A DNA stretch of 47,944 nucleotides, from contig JASMLG010000045.1 in assembly GCA_030748805.1 (NCBI GenBank), forward strand, positions 1 through 47,944, given 5' to 3'. This document shows, piece after piece, positions 400-38,206 of the stretch (position 1 is the stretch's first letter; each line of letters opens with the position of its first letter). Source of the DNA: Phycisphaerales bacterium. Its GTDB lineage: Bacteria > Planctomycetota > Phycisphaerae > Phycisphaerales > SM1A02. Under the pieces are notes generated by a model. It was not told where the DNA came from. It did not search any database and worked only from the letters and a program-made list of their open reading frames with translations. The position numbers were made by a program, and so were the translations under genes.

Positions 400-3300
400 T
401 TACGGAGGGGCATAAGGTCTGAAGGGCTCTATTGTACCACTTTCTTCGCTGTAGAGCAGAGCGCGATGCATGCCAAGTCGAGATGCTTCTGGCGTATCTA
501 TAAGATTTGTAGAATCGTTTGCTCCCATCTGCAAGAGCACTCTAATATCAAATTCTCTTAGCGTTTGACGGTCGAATGATCGATTCAGATTTGCAAGTGT
601 GTCGGTAGAGATAATCACATGCATACCAAGGGTTGACCCCTCTTTTAATAATTCGGCAAAAATTTGAGCAGGGGTTTTTGGTTTATCTTCATCGCCCATA
701 GAAAAACCATAATCATCTTCGTCACGTCTTAGTGACCTAAATCTATGAAGTGCATTAATTACAAAAAACATAGTTGGGGAATTTTCTGATCCATTTTCAA
801 GACGAATTTGCAACTCCTCATTTACTTTAGACATTGCATCGACAATTTCTCTTGTTCCAATTTTATTGACGGTGTTTCTCATGGACTTGGCCACATTTGG
901 TAGAAGTGGTGCATGAGTTGAATCAGCTGGTGTCCCATCTAGAAGAATAAATTTTACTGACTCGTCTTCGTTTGGTGTTAGTTGTTTGTCAAGAGACAAA
1001 AGTGAATTTGCAATCATTCCAGAAGTAGTTTCATCTTGTTGCCCAACGATTAAGAGATTGCTCCCTGTTGCTTGACGGAAAGTTGCTGATGTATCTTCCT
1101 TAATTGCCATTGCGCCACCAAGCCACGCTTTAACTGACACAGGTTTGACACTTTCTTTAGTTGACTGGTATGCGGAATTGGATTGGAGATGAAGTGGTTT
1201 GTTCCCTTCGTAAACAACCATTTCTCTTTTTTGACCATTATCTCTTTGATTTAAGTTTTCAAGTAGAACTTCTCTCTCATTGTCGTCTAGCCAGACAACT
1301 TGGAATGGACTGTTCCCCTCGACATTTCCAGCTGCATCGTTGTAAATTGCCTCACCTGGTCTTGAAAGAAGTCGTGCGGCTGCATTATCCTCATTAAGAA
1401 TAATGTAACTATCTTGTTCTGAACATTGCAAGGCAATGCGTACTGCCATCTGACCCATTGTTGATCGGCTTAATGTGTACGCGCCGTCAAGTGTTTGAGA
1501 ACCCATGATTGCATGAATACCAAAAGCACGACCTTGTCTGACAAGACGATCAAGAAGAAGATTTGCTTCTTGTGCAACTTTGTCATCATCAATGAAGAAC
1601 TCTTGGAATTCATCAATGATTAGTAAGATTCTTGGCATAGGATCTTGGCATTTTTCTCTGAAGCCAGCAATGTCTTGAACACCTAATTCACGGAACAATT
1701 CTCCTCTTCGCTTAAGCTCTGAATCAATTTTTTGCAGAACGCTAATGCCAAATTCTCTGTCGCTTTCTACAGCAACAACTCTTGCATGAGGCAATTTGTT
1801 AGTTGCATACGTCTTAAATTCAACCCCTTTCTTAAAGTCAACTAAGTAAAATTCGATTTCTTCAGGCCTATACCAAAGTGCAAGATTTGTAATTAATACG
1901 TGTAACAAGGTGGACTTACCGGAACCGGTCTTGCCAGCAATTAGTGCGTGTTGTGCTGTTCCTCTTCCAAGTGTTAGATTTTGCATTTTTGTTGCACCAG
2001 ATCGTCCTAGTGGTACAACAATTTTTTGTGAAGTGTTTTTAGACCAAAAGCTGTCTTTCTTTGGTGCAATCACACTAAAAGGAACCTCAACCCTGTGTGT
2101 GTCTTCAGCAGTGTCTCCAACTCTTTTGACAATAATCGTAGTAGTGTTTTCATCAGGAGGATCTTCCAAGAGGAGTGGTAGATCTGAGAGTTCCTCTGAA
2201 TCTATTTTGAAAGTACCGTCATCTTCAACAAAGCGTATTGGGATTCTTTTTAATGTGTCGTCATCTATTCCGTTTGGTAATGCTATTGAAGAATCGCGAT
2301 GAATAATCACATGTACACCACAACGTTCGCCACTAGTAATAATACTTGACAATCGTTTTGCTGCATTGTCTGAAAAGTTGTTTGGCAAATCGGCTATAAC
2401 AAGGAATCGATATGGTTCTGCAATCTCGCCTGCCTGTTCGTTGTAGGCATCGATAGATTCAAATTCGTTTCGTAAATATTTTTGAATCACCGTTTCCATG
2501 TGTTCAGTGAGTCGTGCAAGTTGTGTTTCGATATGTTTTGGTTCGGTCCAAGCACGGTCTAACAGTTGAGATTCCTCATAGTCAGCAAGATGTAAGACGC
2601 CAGCAAAACTCTGACCTAGTCCAATTGGATCAAGAAGGGTGAACTTGGCTTTACCTGGTGGAATTGAAGTAAGAACCCTTAGCATTGCGTTTTGTAAAAA
2701 ACGGATACTTTTTACTCTGTTTTTACCTGAAGATGAAATTAATAGAGACGCATCGCTCGGCAAGCTTGAGCAGATTGGCAAAGCAAGTTCTTCGCTGCCG
2801 TGAAGTTTGTAAGCGCTGCCACTTGGCAAATCGCCAGCAATTTTGGAGAAATCAACTATGAATTTGCCAACCGGGATGTGTCTGAATGCAACTGTACATG
2901 GTTCCCATTTTGACCATTTTGTATCCCAAGATGGATGGTCTAAGTTATTTGAAGCATTTTGTTCGTCTACGTCTGTCCTAAAAGAAGTCAACTCCTTGTC
3001 CCAGCGATTGACAAGTTCATCTCTTGTACTTTTTTCATCTTCATTAATTGATTTAATTGTCTTTTTGTATGTTGACTCAATACGTTTGTTTTCTTCTTTT
3101 TCATCATTGTCGATTTGAGTCATAGATGTTCTGAAAGTGATTTCGGAATCGTCTAAATCTTGTTGGAGTTTTGCTGTTAGTTTTTTTGCGACCGTCTTAA
3201 ATCTAGTTTTTTCTTTATCTATATCTTTTTTGTAAAGCCGCTCTACTTCTGCAAGCCGTGGTTTATATTTGTCTTCGGCTTTCTTAATCTCAGAATCGCG

Positions 3301-4200
3301 AGTTGAGATTAACTTTTTTTCCTTTGCTCTTCTTTTTGCTTCAATTGTTTCCAAAGAGGAATTGTATGATTTTCTCGCAGATGAAACGTTATGCACGAAC
3401 TCCGAAAGTTTATTGCGCACAGAATTTCTGCCGGAAACGAACGTAACCCTTAGCGAAAGAATAGAAATGCACATGGCACCAATCGGAATTACAAACAAAG
3501 GAATAGATGGTGCCCATCCATAATATGTACCAGAAGTAAATGTTGCAGCAACCGTTACTATGAAGACAATAACTGCTGGTTTGATTCCGACAAACCACCT
3601 AGCCTTGGGATCAGACTTAATTGCTTCAAGAGCGTTTCTTGCACCAGCAACATAATCAGCCATGGATTTTGTGTCTTCTGCTGTACCACCATCAGCGTTT
3701 GACTCTTGGGATTGTCTAAGACGTGAAAGTGCTTTTGGCGCTTCTTCGCAAAGTTCATCTAAAACTTCTTGTGTTTCTGATAATTCTTCACGTGCTTCAC
3801 TTGCTTTCTCTCTAGGTTTAGAGACAGCGCCCTCAAAAACTGACTCTGCTAACCAAATGGCCTCATTTAATTTAGTTTCTGTCCTTTCGATTAAGTCCTC
3901 AGCCCTTGTCTTAATTACATTTACGTGCTCTTCATGTTTTTCTTTTAGGACTATTGGCTCAAGAGTGCGTCTTTGGTCTACATCCTCGACAACCTTTTCT
4001 TTTTTATCTTTTGCTTGATCTCTGGCACTGGCATATTTGTCTTCACATGATTGCAAGTCAGCAGTGCGTTTTCTTTCAGCAGAATTACGGCTGTTTGTAA
4101 TACGTTCACGCAATGCATCCTCACCGGAAGAGGTTTCTCGTATGAGAGACCTAATTGTTTGAGTTTGTATTTTTTGTTTTTGTATTAACGTTCTAGTCAT
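400..4200 (-). CDS. FtsK/SpoIIIE-type ATPase, EssC/EccC-like
   Basis: This large membrane-anchored ATPase (1266 aa) resembles the motor ATPases of type VII (ESX/Ess) secretion. Residues 1-190 are charged coiled coil. Two membrane segments lie at about 205-225 and 233-255, followed by more coiled coil to about 430. Three FtsK-like modules then follow. The first, near residue 488, has a degenerate P-loop (SSSGKNRVKS). The second is intact, with Walker A GKTGSGKS at 756-763 and Walker B ILLIIDEF with Asp863-Glu864. The third, near 1047, is degenerate (GQQDETTSG). I chose the ATG at 4200. A GTG at 4278 would add 26 residues and overlap the gene upstream. It is the last gene of a four-gene locus with a WXG100-like protein. 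DNA translocation is less likely because no C-terminal gamma domain is visible. The family is sure; the secretion role is inferred from context. Confidence 0.85.
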   Translation of the reverse strand: MTRTLIQKQKIQTQTIRSLIRETSSGEDALRERITNSRNSAERKRTADLQSCEDKYASARDQAKDKKEKVVEDVDQRRTLEPIVLKEKHEEHVNVIKTRAEDLIERTETKLNEAIWLAESVFEGAVSKPREKASEAREELSETQEVLDELCEEAPKALSRLRQSQESNADGGTAEDTKSMADYVAGARNALEAIKSDPKARWFVGIKPAVIVFIVTVAATFTSGTYYGWAPSIPLFVIPIGAMCISILSLRVTFVSGRNSVRNKLSEFVHNVSSARKSYNSSLETIEAKRRAKEKKLISTRDSEIKKAEDKYKPRLAEVERLYKKDIDKEKTRFKTVAKKLTAKLQQDLDDSEITFRTSMTQIDNDEKEENKRIESTYKKTIKSINEDEKSTRDELVNRWDKELTSFRTDVDEQNASNNLDHPSWDTKWSKWEPCTVAFRHIPVGKFIVDFSKIAGDLPSGSAYKLHGSEELALPICSSLPSDASLLISSSGKNRVKSIRFLQNAMLRVLTSIPPGKAKFTLLDPIGLGQSFAGVLHLADYEESQLLDRAWTEPKHIETQLARLTEHMETVIQKYLRNEFESIDAYNEQAGEIAEPYRFLVIADLPNNFSDNAAKRLSSIITSGERCGVHVIIHRDSSIALPNGIDDDTLKRIPIRFVEDDGTFKIDSEELSDLPLLLEDPPDENTTTIIVKRVGDTAEDTHRVEVPFSVIAPKKDSFWSKNTSQKIVVPLGRSGATKMQNLTLGRGTAQHALIAGKTGSGKSTLLHVLITNLALWYRPEEIEFYLVDFKKGVEFKTYATNKLPHARVVAVESDREFGISVLQKIDSELKRRGELFRELGVQDIAGFREKCQDPMPRILLIIDEFQEFFIDDDKVAQEANLLLDRLVRQGRAFGIHAIMGSQTLDGAYTLSRSTMGQMAVRIALQCSEQDSYIILNEDNAAARLLSRPGEAIYNDAAGNVEGNSPFQVVWLDDNEREVLLENLNQRDNGQKREMVVYEGNKPLHLQSNSAYQSTKESVKPVSVKAWLGGAMAIKEDTSATFRQATGSNLLIVGQQDETTSGMIANSLLSLDKQLTPNEDESVKFILLDGTPADSTHAPLLPNVAKSMRNTVNKIGTREIVDAMSKVNEELQIRLENGSENSPTMFFVINALHRFRSLRRDEDDYGFSMGDEDKPKTPAQIFAELLKEGSTLGMHVIISTDTLANLNRSFDRQTLREFDIRVLLQMGANDSTNLIDTPEASRLGMHRALLYSEESGTIEPFRPYAPP

Positions 4201-4240
4201 GGAAGTGTCATTATTAATTATCGCAATGTACAGTGTATTC

Positions 4241-4453
4241 TTAAGAGCAGTCGTTATTTGCCCTAATAATAACCTCACTTATGGCTTCCATGGCACCAAT
4301 TGCCATATTCACAGATGTGACAAGTGGTTCGATATGCTTGTTCTCTATTCGCTTACTTACTGGGTCGTTCCAATATTCATTCGCTTGATCCCAATGTTGC
4401 ATCAATATCTTTGTCGCCTTTGTCAGTTGGGCTGTCGCTGTCTGCATGCTCAT
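4241..4453 (-). CDS. Small Trp-containing protein of the ESX-like locus
   Basis: This 70-aa protein of unknown function has the core HWDQANEYWNDPVSKRIENK followed by HIEPL, then a helical segment. A short protein with spaced Trp residues and an H/Y-x-x-P-L ending is, from memory, a recurring companion of WXG100-like and FtsK genes in planctomycetes. It could be a second helical-hairpin substrate or a chaperone. The first 77 bases overlap, in another frame, the acidic tail of the upstream coiled-coil gene. A start at Met18 (4402) would shorten the overlap to 26 bases and keep the whole conserved core. The ATG at 4200 of the ATPase gene follows after 40 bases. That the ORF is real is likely; its role is a guess. 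Confidence 0.7.
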   Translation of the reverse strand: MSMQTATAQLTKATKILMQHWDQANEYWNDPVSKRIENKHIEPLVTSVNMAIGAMEAISEVIIRANNDCS

Positions 4454-5018
4454 TGTCTGTGTCCTCTTTTATATCATCGCCGCTTCTTGCGATGGATTCA
4501 AGTTTTGTTTCTGTGGTAGGGCTTTCATCAAGACCTGGAGCCGATGTTGAAATGTACTTTTCAAGTGAATCAATAGAATTAGATAGAATGACTACTGCTT
4601 TATGTAAATTGCCGTCGAGAGAAGAGCTTAGTGGCGCCATAGCACCCTTATATTCACTCAATGCGTGTTCAAATTCTCTAGACCAATATTTGGTTTTTTT
4701 AATTTTATGAATTGTGTGTTTGACTTCATCTTCTCTTTTTTTAACTAGTCGAACTTCGTCAACCGGACCTCTTGGATTATCCGGTTGAGATATTGTTGCT
4801 CTAAATAATTCACTCTTTGCTTGTGCAAGCCGTTCTTCTGCTTTTCGTTTCTCGCTTGCCCAATGCATTTGTTGTATTGACCCAAGCCACATTGTTGTTC
4901 TGTTTGCTTCAGAGTCGGCTGTAGAGATGGCTCGTTTCGCTTTATCAATATATTTTAGAAGAGCTGTGCGAAATTCTATTAGTGCTTCTAGTGATCTAAC
5001 ATTTGCTGATTGAGACAT
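4377..5018 (-). CDS. Coiled-coil protein of the ESX-like locus
   Basis: This 213-aa soluble protein has no signal peptide or membrane segment. Residues 1-150 are helical and rich in Lys, Glu and Arg, with a Trp at about 45 and the pair YW near residue 111, consistent with a long coiled-coil hairpin. The last 50 residues are acidic low-complexity sequence (Asp, Glu, Ser). It starts 2 bases after the stop of the WXG100-like gene and overlaps the next gene, so the four genes are almost certainly cotranscribed and translationally coupled. Its position suggests a substrate-binding or scaffold partner of the secretion ATPase. I know of no characterised homologue. Confidence 0.8.
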   Translation of the reverse strand: MSQSANVRSLEALIEFRTALLKYIDKAKRAISTADSEANRTTMWLGSIQQMHWASEKRKAEERLAQAKSELFRATISQPDNPRGPVDEVRLVKKREDEVKHTIHKIKKTKYWSREFEHALSEYKGAMAPLSSSLDGNLHKAVVILSNSIDSLEKYISTSAPGLDESPTTETKLESIARSGDDIKEDTDNEHADSDSPTDKGDKDIDATLGSSE

Positions 5019-5020
5019 AG

Positions 5021-5293
5021 TTATTTTTGTTGTAAGTAGTCCTCAATCCGTTGTGCTTTTCTAAGTAAAAATGGGATTTGTTCATTTGTGACTTTAGCGA
5101 ACTTGTTGATAGATTTTATTGTGGTATCGAATTCTTCTTCAAACTTACGTTGCTCTTGGTCTCGCCAGCTTTGAGAAAGAGAACTCATTCTTGATCTCAT
5201 AAGTTGAATTTGATGTGTCAAATCATCATTAAACCGCTTTAGGTCATGGGCGAAACGACGGATTTCTTCTGGGTCTGCAATTGCTTTTGCCAT
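5021..5293 (-). CDS. WXG100-like (ESAT-6 superfamily) protein
   Basis: This 90-aa all-helical protein has the size of an EsxA/ESAT-6 protein. The central turn reads SQSWRDQEQRKFEEEF: the usual W-x-G becomes Trp43-Arg44-Asp45, followed by the characteristic downstream Phe. WXG100 proteins are secreted as helical hairpins by FtsK-family ATPases, and one is encoded downstream in the same operon. It is the first gene of the locus. A purine-rich TAAGGA sits about 10 bases before the ATG and may be a weak ribosome-binding site. The 97-bp gap to the upstream dehydrogenase gene should hold the promoter. There is no clear C-terminal YxxxD/E secretion signal; the tail ends RIEDYLQQK. Confidence 0.8.
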   Translation of the reverse strand: MAKAIADPEEIRRFAHDLKRFNDDLTHQIQLMRSRMSSLSQSWRDQEQRKFEEEFDTTIKSINKFAKVTNEQIPFLLRKAQRIEDYLQQK

Positions 5294-26562: not shown

Positions 26563-27162
26563 TTAGTCCCAATCAATTCCAGCATCCCCAAGCTCCGATC
26601 TTTGGAGTGAACGTCGTACTGCATCCAGCATTTCAGGTTCCAGCAATTCTGTTGACCACCATTGCTTCATTAACTTGGTTCCCCACCATTCTGGTTCAAT
26701 TAAACAGGGTAATCTATGCTTAGAATTTCTCATATGAGCACTTGACCATTCCCACTGATTTGGGTTGTCAACAAGACAGGCTCTGACAGGATTTTGTTCA
26801 ACATATCTCCATACAGTTCCCAGATGTCTCCCTTCGCGAACTTCTTTTGAATAGAAGCGATCTTGCCACAAATGTCCAGTACGCTCATGTTTTTTATTAA
26901 ACGATTGTGCATAAACTCCAGTAAGCCACTTCATGCCTAAACTTACATTTTTACCAAGAACTGATTTTGAAAGAATGTGAAAGTGATTTGGCATTAATGT
27001 AACTGCAATAATTCGAACACCATACATATCACAACTTTTTGTTAATAAATTTAGAAATGATCTGTAGTCTTCTTTATCAAGAAAGGTTGGTTTTCTGTCC
27101 ACACCTCTATTTACAATGTGATAGTAACCGTCGTTTTTAATTTCTCTTATTAATCTTCCCAT
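26563..27162 (-). CDS. REP-associated tyrosine transposase (Y1/HUH family)
   Basis: This 199-aa single-strand transposase/endonuclease is of the RAYT (TnpA-REP) type, related to IS200/IS605 TnpA. The HUH motif is MPNHFHIL with His60 and His62. A Tyr at about 84 in GVYAQSFNKKHERTGHLWQD is the likely nucleophile, and WRYVEQNPVRACLV is characteristic. Such proteins cut REP-type hairpins, and hairpin clusters flank this gene on both sides. It looks intact. A -10-like TGTAAT (complement of 27171-27176) ends 8 nt before the ATG. The C-terminus continues some 25 residues past the core. Confidence 0.92.
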   Translation of the reverse strand: MGRLIREIKNDGYYHIVNRGVDRKPTFLDKEDYRSFLNLLTKSCDMYGVRIIAVTLMPNHFHILSKSVLGKNVSLGMKWLTGVYAQSFNKKHERTGHLWQDRFYSKEVREGRHLGTVWRYVEQNPVRACLVDNPNQWEWSSAHMRNSKHRLPCLIEPEWWGTKLMKQWWSTELLEPEMLDAVRRSLQRSELGDAGIDWD

Positions 27163-36742: not shown

Positions 36743-36799
36743 CATTCTCTGGTATTCTACGTAATCGTATTTAACAAAACTACATATATGGAGTCATAC

Positions 36800-38206
36800 A
36801 TGAAAATCCTCATTATTCTTACATCAATAGCACTTACACCATTCGCTATGGGGCATTCTGATTATTTCCCACCAGATCATCCTGATCACCCATCGGATCA
36901 CCCTGAACATCCAGCAGATCATCCTGATCACCCAGATCAATCTGGAGATGATTCTGACAATACAGAAAAAGCAGCAGAAGATAACACTGCAGCAACGGAA
37001 CAAGCGAAAGCGTTACTGACTAAGGTGCATGAAACCTATAAAAACGCTCCAATCTTAAAAGAAGAGGTTGCTCTTATGGTTCCAGCAATGATGCCAGGCG
37101 AAGAGCCAGAAACAATGAGATTGAGTTCATTATTTGGGAAAAAAAGCGGAACAATCAAAGCTGAAGATGAACTAGATGCTACATGGTTAGATGGCAACAT
37201 TTACCTCGTATTAGAAGGTAAGGACGAATCGTATGTAAAGTGTAAAGCAGAAACATTCAGTGTTGGATTAGATACAGCTTCAGGAGGTCGTGGTATGCCT
37301 GGGTTGTGGGCTCTTGCACTTAGAGAAAGTGATTCAATGGATGATTGGCTAGCATCCTTCTCCATGGGAATGCCAATGACATCAGTTGTTGGAGTTTCAA
37401 CCGAAAAGCAAGATGATGGCTCTTCATCAGAAATTATAGAATTGAAAACAATTATGGGTCCCGTACACATAACTGTTGACGAGAATAATACAGTTAGTCA
37501 TTTCTCAATTACTATGGTTAGACCTGGCATGCCAGAAATGAAAATCACTGCCACTGCTGATGTAACCTTTTTAGATGAAATGCCAAATATATCTTTTGAT
37601 GCTGGTGAAAGAAAAGAATATGGTTCAATGGAAGAATTGGCGACCGCTGGACAGGGTACGTTAGTTGGTTCCCCTGCGCCTGACTTTACTTTATCAAGAA
37701 TGGATGGATCGGGGGATGTGACGCTGTCTTCGCTCAAGGGCGAAGTTGTAGTTCTTGATTTCTGGGCAACATGGTGTGGTCCTTGCAAAAAAGGTCTGCC
37801 ATTTCTGGACGAATTTAATGATTGGGTTGAGGAGCAGGGACTAAAAGTTAATGTCTTTGCAGTAAACGTTTGGGAAGAAGGAAAAGACGATAAGGTTAAA
37901 AAGTTTTGGGCTGATAATGAATATAAGACAGCAGTATTAATGGGTAGTGATGATAAGAAGTTGACCGAGAACTACAAGATTACAGGTATCCCAACAACGG
38001 TTATAGTTGGAACTGATGGGAATGTGGTAAATCAACATAGCGGTTTTAGTGGTGGCGAATCTATGATTGCTGGACTTAAGGGTAGTGTTGGGAAAGCCCT
38101 TGGAATCCAAATCGAAGATAAGCCCACAAGCGATCACCCTGATCATCCTGACCATCCCGATCACCCTGACCATCCGGACCATCCCGATCATCCGGGGAAC
38201 AACTGA
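36800..38206 (+). CDS. Secreted thioredoxin-like (TlpA) protein with Asp-His-Pro tails
   Basis: This 468-aa protein has a signal peptide (MKILIILTSIALTPFAMG). Next comes an N-terminal tail rich in DHP/EHP triplets (about residues 19-47), then a lipoprotein-carrier-like beta domain (about 65-275), then a TlpA/AhpC-type thioredoxin domain with GSPAPDFTLSRMDG and the redox motif WCGPCKK. The last 25 residues contain seven uninterrupted DHP triplets. His/Asp-rich tails suggest binding of Zn, Cu or Ni in the periplasm. GGAG with a 6-nt spacer fixes the ATG at 36800 over 36788. It ends in a strong terminator. Confidence 0.85.
   Translation: MKILIILTSIALTPFAMGHSDYFPPDHPDHPSDHPEHPADHPDHPDQSGDDSDNTEKAAEDNTAATEQAKALLTKVHETYKNAPILKEEVALMVPAMMPGEEPETMRLSSLFGKKSGTIKAEDELDATWLDGNIYLVLEGKDESYVKCKAETFSVGLDTASGGRGMPGLWALALRESDSMDDWLASFSMGMPMTSVVGVSTEKQDDGSSSEIIELKTIMGPVHITVDENNTVSHFSITMVRPGMPEMKITATADVTFLDEMPNISFDAGERKEYGSMEELATAGQGTLVGSPAPDFTLSRMDGSGDVTLSSLKGEVVVLDFWATWCGPCKKGLPFLDEFNDWVEEQGLKVNVFAVNVWEEGKDDKVKKFWADNEYKTAVLMGSDDKKLTENYKITGIPTTVIVGTDGNVVNQHSGFSGGESMIAGLKGSVGKALGIQIEDKPTSDHPDHPDHPDHPDHPDHPDHPGNN
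36875..36934 (+). repeat. DHP/EHP codon repeat, N-terminal copy
   Basis: Imperfect repeats based on GAT-CAY-CCN encode PDHPDHPSDHPEHPADHPDH. The spacers (Ser, Ala) and codon choice vary, so the array is older or less regular than the C-terminal one. Confidence 0.7.
38132..38194 (+). repeat. (Asp-His-Pro)7 codon repeat, C-terminal copy
   Basis: Seven 9-bp units encode Asp-His-Pro in a row. Synonymous codons vary between units (GAT/GAC, CAC/CAT, CCT/CCC/CCG) while the amino acids do not, which suggests selection on the protein rather than fresh slippage. Confidence 0.8.

What the first reader, a model, noticed from the sequence alone, without database searches (positions are those of the whole stretch)
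400..5293. Four-gene ESX/Ess-like secretion locus in a presumed planctomycete
A WXG100-like protein, a coiled-coil protein, a 70-aa Trp-containing protein and a three-module FtsK/EssC-like ATPase are packed in one operon with 2-base gaps and overlaps. Type VII secretion is described mainly in Actinobacteria and Firmicutes. This version lacks recognisable EccB, EccD, YukD or EsaA-like genes, and its ATPase replaces the FHA or EccC N-terminus with long coiled coils around two membrane helices. Only the middle ATPase module keeps a canonical Walker A, so the architecture differs from known EccC/EssC. It may be a minimal, undescribed secretion or envelope system.
Basis: partly seen in the sequence, partly recalled or inferred. 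Interest (0 to 1): 0.75.

Follow-up and report, generated by a model that had tools for sequence, protein, structure and literature searches.

The report
Minimal type VII-like motor in planctomycetes
A planctomycete carries a compact set of four genes (a membrane motor and three small helical partners) from a little-studied branch of the type VII protein-secretion family; some relatives elsewhere carry toxin parts that this version lacks, and nobody seems to have shown yet that it secretes anything.

Summary
The four-gene operon is real. The order WXG100 - long hairpin (CC) - 70-aa protein (p70) - ATPase holds in 61 of 65 testable loci (window included), and all four genes in 62; no other neighbour is shared by more than 6 of 81 loci. 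In the 3 exceptions the partners lie elsewhere in the same genome. Two genomes carry a second CC-p70-ATPase set with no WXG gene nearby. p70 is a second, shortened WXG100-like protein; the aligned small proteins carry WxD, not WxG. CC is a predicted two-helix hairpin. Of the ATPase's three FtsK-like modules only the middle one has a P-loop (81 of 81). It forms a branch beside EccC and EssC; a rooted tree weakly places it before their D1/D2 duplication. Relatives in other phyla have a long helical protein beside a p70-like gene, one with a nuclease end and an immunity gene, two with a weakly ParB-like end; planctomycete CC has no such end. The kind is known: Zhang 2012 (planctomycetes named), HP0062/HP0066 of Helicobacter, CoCoNuTs 2024. 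New here: the toxin-less, membrane-segment-bearing four-gene core and p70 as second WXG. Export is the best guess, untested.

The parts
5021..5293 (-). WXG100-family protein (90 aa), WxD instead of WxG at the turn, C-terminus ...EDYLQQK
   Evidence: Pfam PF06013 4.3e-08 over cut-off; profile best matches HP0062 3fx7 2e-13, then EsxB 8e-10; in 62 aligned rows WxD 62, WxG 0, end-motif Tyr and Leu 62 each
4377..5018 (-). CC: long two-helix hairpin (residues 7-77 and 86-159, one break at 136) with an acidic, low-confidence tail
   Evidence: AlphaFold2 block pLDDT 93-98 over residues 11-150; relatives in 67 of 81 loci
4241..4453 (-). p70: second, shortened WXG100-like protein with invariant WxD
   Evidence: W and D invariant in 66 aligned rows; profile best PDB hit EsxA E 0.009; Pfam WXG100 in 11 of 66 members at E<=0.1; hhalign to the WXG profile 68%; p70 profile also hits the WXG gene at E<=0.001 in 40 of 69 loci
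400..4200 (-). EccC/EssC-like FtsK-superfamily ATPase (1266 aa if it starts at ATG 4200; the ORF runs to GTG 4278)
   Evidence: PF01580 6e-38; EccCa/EssC/EccCb 1e-31 to 2e-33, all under their cut-offs
3604..4200 (-). N-terminal charged region of the ATPase, probably helical
   Evidence: composition read from the sequence; no coiled-coil predictor was run
3451..3594 (-). two hydrophobic (putative membrane) segments of the ATPase
   Evidence: hydropathy; 2 segments in 63 of 72 full-length proteins, 1 in 7, 3 in 1, 0 in 1
2959..3441 (-). second charged helical region of the ATPase
   Evidence: profile matches apolipoprotein-type helices within profile positions 243-444, which shows helical make-up only
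2074..2841 (-). module 1: FtsK-like without P-loop, possibly the counterpart of the EccC/EssC DUF domain
   Evidence: no P-loop pattern in modules 1 or 3 in 81 loci; its end is collinear with the stretch before the first ATPase domain of YukB
1309..2061 (-). module 2: the only module with a P-loop
   Evidence: GxTGSGKS and DEFQ in 81 of 81
1912..1935 (-). Walker A GKTGSGKS (residues 782-789)
409..1131 (-). module 3: FtsK-like without P-loop

Best explanation
A self-contained, membrane-anchored protein-export motor of the WXG100/EccC-EssC superfamily, on a branch of its own beside the ESX (EccC) and Ess (EssC) types. Shown by comparison: four genes that go together; an ATPase with a hydrophobic pair and one P-loop module between two modules without P-loops; a WXG100 protein with WxD; a second short WxD protein (p70); and a protein predicted as a long helical hairpin (CC). 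Inferred: the ATPase forms a hexamer on the inner membrane; CC and p70, side by side wherever both were found and usually with overlapping genes, form a complex dedicated to their own motor; the WXG protein is a separable partner that two motors can share. The motor would move the WXG protein and/or the CC-p70 complex across the inner membrane. CC is related to the helical part of the larger protein that stands beside the p70-like gene in relatives of other phyla, some of which end in toxin-like domains, so it is most likely a former carrier domain without its toxin that became an exported spacer, adaptor or structural part. The crossing of the outer membrane is unexplained.
For: Conserved block: all three partners in 62 of 65 loci with at least 2.2 kb upstream, 61 in strict order; no other flanking family in more than 6 of 81 loci. 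The 3 exceptions (L026, L040, L069) hold WXG and CC elsewhere in the same genome, with p70 directly after CC each time. G008 and G015 have a second CC-p70-ATPase set without WXG in the 12-kb region, and one WXG100 match each in the genome. CC-p70 genes overlap in 47 of 63 loci, 33 by exactly 4 bases. P-loop in module 2 only, 81 of 81. Module 2 of the group is a clade apart from all EccC/EssC modules (95/98; 92/90). CC resembles the helical part of the larger protein in Caballeronia, Rhodococcus, Deinococcus and Lentisphaerae clusters: 0 of 200 plain and 0 of 200 heptad-keeping shuffles reach the real score. The Helicobacter one carries a colicin-type/WHH nuclease and is followed by a SUKH gene. 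Hydrophobic pair in 63 of 72 ATPases. WXG and CC end helix 2 in a similar pattern, hydrophobic-acidic-x-Tyr (Tyr 62 of 62 and 57 of 57, acidic residue 60 of 62 and 51 of 57).
Against: No secretion has been shown for any member that I could find; a 2023 review says Gram-negative WXG100/FtsK pairs are unconfirmed as secretion systems (PMC10765036, passage). I identified no outer-membrane or other channel component; YukC/EssB 0 of 20 over cut-off. The Helicobacter protein shows no similarity to CC (33 of 200 and 38 of 200 shuffles reach its score). The window's CC matches no Pfam family; 10 of 67 CC proteins carry an Imm33-like end (8 over Pfam's cut-off), which fits immunity or regulation as well as export. 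CoCoNuT-linked relatives lack membrane segments and may work inside the cell. Patchy distribution: WXG protein in 39 of 244 Planctomycetota and 4 of 144 Verrucomicrobiota genomes.
Confidence: 0.55

Rival explanations
1. An intracellular conflict or defence module: the WXG/CC/p70 proteins are regulators or scaffolds of an ATPase that acts on nucleic acid or proteins inside the cell, as has been discussed for CoCoNuT and TerY-P linked relatives. The planctomycete form would be a domesticated stand-alone version.
For: The Caballeronia relative sits among VWA, PP2C, kinase, CARF and AAA genes; CoCoNuT relatives have a coiled-coil nuclease fusion and lack membrane segments; PADLOC SspH and mad8 models match the ATPase module.
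Against: No gene family is conserved around the planctomycete loci, and the ATPase has a hydrophobic pair in 63 of 72. The PADLOC matches cover the shared FtsK fold only.
Confidence: 0.2
2. A house-keeping envelope or cell-division device that uses an Esx-like motor to place structural hairpin proteins, not to secrete effectors.
For: One WXG100 match in 19 of 20 genomes and one CC match in 18 of 20; no toxin domain recognised in the CC proteins scanned.
Against: Found in a minority of sampled genomes, so not part of the group's basic cell plan; no conserved envelope or division neighbour.
Confidence: 0.15
3. A DNA translocase (FtsK/SpoIIIE or conjugative type).
Against: 20 of 20 genomes searched have an FtsK with the alpha domain besides; the NCBIfam FtsK score (42 bits) is below EccCa (116); FtsK motors are a separate clade (100/100); WXG partners are conserved.
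Confidence: 0.05

Closest known systems
'Mobile' T7SS with solo WXG and YueA-like ATPase, Zhang et al. 2012 (PMC3482391, table footnote, passages)
   Same: WXG protein plus three-module ATPase with only the middle module active; planctomycetes and verrucomicrobia named
   Different: The passages seen mention neither CC nor p70 nor a fixed four-gene order; I found no conserved mobile-element neighbours in the planctomycete loci
HP0062/HP0066 of Helicobacter pylori (PMC3397514, PMC4978471, passages)
   Same: WRD at the bend, small hairpin, FtsK/SpoIIIE gene in the cluster; HP0062 is the best PDB match of the WXG profile
   Different: The H. pylori genes between HP0062 and HP0066 were not read here
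EssC-like/WXG100 extension of Type III-A CoCoNuTs (PMC11090510, passages)
   Same: N-terminal coiled coil, three modules with only the central one active, two WXG100 proteins, one without WxG, and a coiled-coil protein
   Different: There the coiled coil is fused to a nuclease and the ATPase lacks membrane segments. The authors call the central module a D2 homologue; my rooted tree does not support that (13% of bootstrap trees) nor a D1 grouping (6%)
T7SSa EccC / T7SSb EssC
   Same: FtsK-like modules in tandem, P-loop module aligning best with D1, hydrophobic N-terminal segment in 3 of the 4 proteins compared
   Different: The two EccC proteins examined have three P-loops and the two EssC proteins two, against one here; EssB not found over cut-off
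LXG toxins of T7SSb (recalled, and PMC10765036 passages)
   Same: long helical N-terminal part in front of a toxin domain, like the larger protein of some relatives
   Different: Planctomycete CC is hairpin only, or hairpin plus Imm33-like domain; the window's CC matched no Pfam family at all

Membership tests
WXG100 protein family (window 90-aa protein) | match to Pfam PF06013 over its cut-off | tested here: met
   33.8 vs 27.3 bits; 62 of 62 aligned members match at E<=0.01
WXG100 protein family (window 90-aa protein) | W-x-G motif at the turn | tested here: not met
   WxD in 62 of 62 aligned rows, WxG in 0; HP0062 also has WRD
WXG100 protein family (window 90-aa protein) | helical hairpin fold | not tested
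   no model of this protein was made; nearest solved relative 3fx7 is a hairpin
T7SSb (Ess) | EssC-type ATPase over the curated cut-off TIGR03928 | tested here: not met
   112 vs 778 bits
T7SSb (Ess) | EssB/YukC | tested here: not met
   0 of 20 related genomes over cut-off, 1 weak match under it, B. subtilis control rings; the window's own genome is not held
T7SSb (Ess) | EsaB/YukD linked to the ATPase | tested here: not met
   3 of 20 genomes have a YukD domain over cut-off; no ATPase of this group in the 9-15 kb fetched around them
T7SSa (ESX) | EccC-type ATPase over cut-off TIGR03924/03925 | tested here: not met
   116 vs 509 and 110 vs 347 bits
T7SSa (ESX) | EccB | tested here: inconclusive
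   0 of 20, but no control genome rang
T7SSa (ESX) | EccD, EccE, mycosin | not tested
   no search was run for EccE or mycosin; PF08817 covers only the ubiquitin-like part of EccD (recalled)
T7SSb (Ess) | EssA, EsaA | not tested
   no search was run for these families
Zhang 2012 WXG/YueA-like type | three-module ATPase with only the middle one active, next to a WXG gene | tested here: met
   P-loop pattern 81 of 81; WXG in 62 of 65 loci; activity itself not tested
Zhang 2012 WXG/YueA-like type | mobile | tested here: inconclusive
   no conserved mobile-element neighbours, but patchy presence and Verrucomicrobia/Lentisphaerae rows nested among planctomycete rows
CoCoNuT-linked EssC-like operon | coiled coil fused to a nuclease | tested here: not met
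   no Pfam match for the window's CC; the ten long variants carry an Imm33-like domain
FtsK DNA translocase | FtsK equivalog score | tested here: not met
   NF007615 42 vs 1566 bits

The most novel reading that the evidence does not exclude
A third type of type VII secretion that works in bacteria with two membranes using only four genes, and that split off before the D1/D2 motor duplication of EccC/EssC, so that it keeps the older one-motor plan. A toxin-carrier hairpin has become a fixed machine part (CC with p70), each motor keeps its own CC-p70 pair, and one WXG protein serves more than one motor. WXG and CC share an end motif (hydrophobic-acidic-x-Tyr) that would act as the export signal in place of YxxxD/E.
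Probability: 0.25. Interest if true: 0.85.

Novelty: new variant of a known kind. Interest (0 to 1): 0.55.

Why it matters
Whether WXG100/FtsK pairs of Gram-negative bacteria are real secretion systems is an open question in the T7SS literature (PMC10765036, passage), and the 2016 secretion-system survey left ESX out as absent from diderm-LPS bacteria (PMC4793230, passage). A four-gene version, present also in a complete genome whose title does not say MAG (Planctomycetales bacterium 10988, L019), makes that question testable. It would also give the smallest EccC/EssC-type machine, a possible view of the stage before the D1/D2 duplication, and a case of a toxin-carrier domain becoming a machine part.

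Tried and rejected

CC against WXG by profile: 4% probability, so CC is not shown to be a WXG100 protein. Foldseek with the CC model gave nothing at E<=0.001. PDB hits of the CC profile (best E 0.005) are generic helices. IMG/VR scans with the ATPase profile and with the Caballeronia ATPase found no relative. PHROGs matches of the ATPase are general FtsK/terminase or unknown. Phage records: 110 with a match, none covering 80%. A search with the N-terminal part of the Helicobacter protein gave 5 proteins, all with the same nuclease end, so it shows no domain swapping. A promoter and terminator scan found fewer sites than shuffles. DNA-segregation role considered and rejected. I had first read the system as near-universal in planctomycetes; the surveys (39 of 244, 4 of 144) say patchy. 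The first is a lower bound, because in many genomes not all first-look candidates were scored.

Rows dropped: p70 alignment 66 of 67 (one 92-aa row out); WXG 62 of 65 (three cut-off proteins out); CC 57 of 67 (ten long Imm33 variants out); ATPase alignment 56 of 72 full-length of 81; tree used 15 of 56 planctomycete-group rows and left out short D3 hits; tree used 8 of 56 and left out the long-branched Deinococcus row; gene-order count used 65 of 81 loci (16 with less than 2.2 kb upstream out); only the best 80 of at least 486 relatives were read. Taxon labels were set by me from record titles.
Full report
What is there. The window comes from a Phycisphaerae-like planctomycete (the nearest ATPases in the tree are from Phycisphaerae/Phycisphaerales MAGs). 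On the minus strand lie, in transcription order, a 90-aa WXG100-like gene (5293-5021), a 213-aa helical gene here called CC (5018-4377), a 70-aa gene here called p70 (4453-4241) and an ATPase gene (to 400). The ATPase ORF opens at GTG 4278, but the closest full-length relatives align from residue 14-27, so the ATG at 4200 is the likelier start.

Gene neighbourhood. A genome scan with the ATPase returned at least 486 relatives; the best 80 were read. Window proteins find WXG, CC and p70 relatives in 65, 67 and 67 of 81 loci, the window included. With profiles, and counting only the 65 loci with at least 2.2 kb upstream, all three are present in 62, in strict order in 61. Clustering of the flanking ORFs finds no other family in more than 6 of 81 loci. 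In the three exceptions the genomes hold WXG and CC elsewhere, with p70 directly after CC each time; in one of them (G407) the pieces sit at contig ends, so the split may be an assembly break. CC and p70 overlap in 47 of 63 loci, 33 of them by exactly four bases. Two genomes (G008, G015) have a second CC-p70-ATPase set with no WXG gene in the 12-kb region, and one WXG100 match each in the genome. CC-p70 is therefore the tightest pair and WXG the separable part.

The small proteins. All 62 aligned WXG rows match Pfam WXG100, but every one has WxD and none WxG. The best solved relative is HP0062 of Helicobacter pylori (2e-13), ahead of EsxB (8e-10); HP0062 is a hairpin dimer with WRD at the bend and an FtsK/SpoIIIE gene in its cluster (PMC3397514, passages). 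p70 has invariant W and D of WxD in 66 aligned rows, its best PDB match is EsxA at E 0.009, 11 of 66 members hit Pfam WXG100 at E<=0.1, hhalign gives 68% to the WXG profile, and the p70 profile also hits the WXG gene itself at E<=0.001 in 40 of 69 loci. I read it as a second, shortened WXG100-like protein; each of these statistics is moderate. CC is predicted as a long two-helix hairpin (block pLDDT 93-98 over residues 11-150) with an acidic tail. Ten of 67 CC proteins are 341-357 aa and end in an Imm33-like domain, 8 of 10 over the Pfam cut-off. WXG and CC both end helix 2 with a hydrophobic-acidic-x-Tyr pattern (Tyr 62 of 62 and 57 of 57; acidic 60 of 62 and 51 of 57). Such a pattern can arise in helices for other reasons.

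The ATPase. GxTGSGKS and DEFQ are present in the middle module in 81 of 81, and no P-loop pattern lies in modules 1 or 3; 79 of 81 have exactly one match in the whole protein, and the two further matches (L045, L074) lie about 500 residues upstream, before module 1. EccC proteins of two Streptomyces plasmids have three P-loops and two EssC proteins have two; six of seven relatives of the present group from elsewhere have one, and the Deinococcus one has no canonical P-loop. Module 2 of the group forms a clade apart from EccC and EssC modules (15 planctomycete-group and 7 other rows, 95/98; 92/90 with FtsK added). With FtsK as outgroup, D1 and D2 of EccC/EssC fall together with the group outside in 69% of 200 bootstrap trees; group with D1 in 6%, with D2 in 13%. 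Taken at face value the group split before the D1/D2 duplication; the support is weak and several branches are long. Scores are higher against D1 than against D2, and the alignment with B. subtilis YukB runs from the end of module 1 through module 2 onto its first ATPase domain, so module 1 may correspond to the DUF domain. Two hydrophobic segments are present in 63 of 72 full-length proteins, one in 7, three in 1, none in 1. By the same measure Caballeronia, Deinococcus and gut-contig relatives show none in the first 600 residues, and Helicobacter, Lentisphaerae and two Rhodococcus relatives a single weak one.

Relatives elsewhere. Of 100 plasmid records with a match, the five best were read, four further ones only as EccC/EssC references, plus a gut contig filed as a phage and a second system in a Lentisphaerae genome. 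Helicobacter sp.: WXG, a 340-aa protein with a colicin-type/WHH nuclease end, SUKH, a 77-aa protein, ATPase. Caballeronia: WXG, a 436-aa protein, a 113-aa protein, a 76-aa protein, ATPase, then CARF/VWA/PP2C/kinase/AAA genes. In Rhodococcus sp. AH-ZY2, Deinococcus and Lentisphaerae the ATPase comes first, but the larger protein again stands directly before a short one (73, 144 and 79 aa). So in these five clusters the larger protein precedes a short one, with one gene between in two. The WXG profile hits all five (6e-27 to 8e-10 in the four plasmid clusters; Lentisphaerae 5e-12). The p70 profile hits the short protein in Deinococcus (1e-07) and Lentisphaerae (5e-05), weakly in Rhodococcus (0.006), and not significantly in Helicobacter (0.04) and Caballeronia (0.5). 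CC resembles the larger protein in four of five beyond every shuffle; the Helicobacter one fails. The Rhodococcus and Lentisphaerae ones share their ends (29% over 135 residues, 4e-08); the ParB label rests on one sub-cut-off match (E 0.005) and recall. The second Rhodococcus plasmid (L098) matched only the ATPase profile, and the gut contig (L099) the ATPase profile and, at 1e-04, the p70 profile within a 349-aa protein. Most of these larger proteins have no recognised end domain.

Distribution. 39 of 244 Planctomycetota and 4 of 144 Verrucomicrobiota genomes have the WXG protein. In a tree of 59 rows the four Verrucomicrobia form a clade (100), Lentisphaerae joins them (100), and both sit inside planctomycete rows; taxon labels need 12 changes against a shuffled mean of 25 and a least possible of 4. 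This looks like mostly inherited, with transfers and losses. In 20 carrier genomes: YukC/EssB 0 over cut-off, YukD 3 and not near the ATPase in the regions fetched, EccB 0 without a working control, FtsK 20.

What is known. Zhang 2012 noted the type, naming planctomycetes, in a table footnote (passages). Helicobacter papers noted HP0062/HP0066 (passages). The CoCoNuT paper describes a nuclease-bearing version without membrane segments and with two WXG100 proteins, and calls the central module a D2 homologue (passages). A WXG100 survey of 940 genomes found them almost only in Actinobacteria, Firmicutes and Chloroflexi, but asked for W-x-G (PMC3935865, passages). Searches of the held library listed no paper on the planctomycete operon; I saw the listings and, for twelve papers, passages. 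The library lacks most subscription journals; Sutcliffe 2011 and Unnikrishnan 2017, cited by the 2023 review, were not read.

Verdict. Real, conserved, known in kind but a distinct and, as far as I could see, unstudied variant. Export is the best explanation (0.55) and is not shown. The novel case was rewritten to include the early split and its probability lowered from 0.30 to 0.25.

Noticed in passing
L009, L018, L024, L028, L046, L049, L050, L060, L062, L080 (CC genes): Ten CC proteins of 341-357 aa carry an Imm33-like C-terminal domain (8 over cut-off), an immunity-type domain on what may be a former toxin carrier.
   Followed up: partly
L104 and L105: Second CC-p70-ATPase sets without a WXG gene nearby, in genomes G008 and G015.
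   Followed up: partly
L096 3789-8615: A Lentisphaerae genome (G019) carries both the planctomycete-type system and a second one with two WXG proteins and a larger protein with a ParB-like end.
   Followed up: partly
L099: A gut contig filed as a phage holds an ATPase of this group, a 349-aa protein with a WXG-like start and a metallopeptidase-like motif, a ThiF/E1-like gene and a recombinase; it looks more like an integrated element than a phage (motifs recalled, not confirmed by Pfam).
   Followed up: no
L004: Record titled Alphaproteobacteria, but its ATPase falls inside the Phycisphaerales rows: probably a mis-binned contig.
   Followed up: no
window 36788-38206: A 472-aa ORF with a thioredoxin-like part (recalled) and runs of DHP repeats at both ends.
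   Followed up: no
window 26563-27162: A 199-aa ORF that looks like a REP-associated tyrosine transposase (motif recalled, not searched).
   Followed up: no
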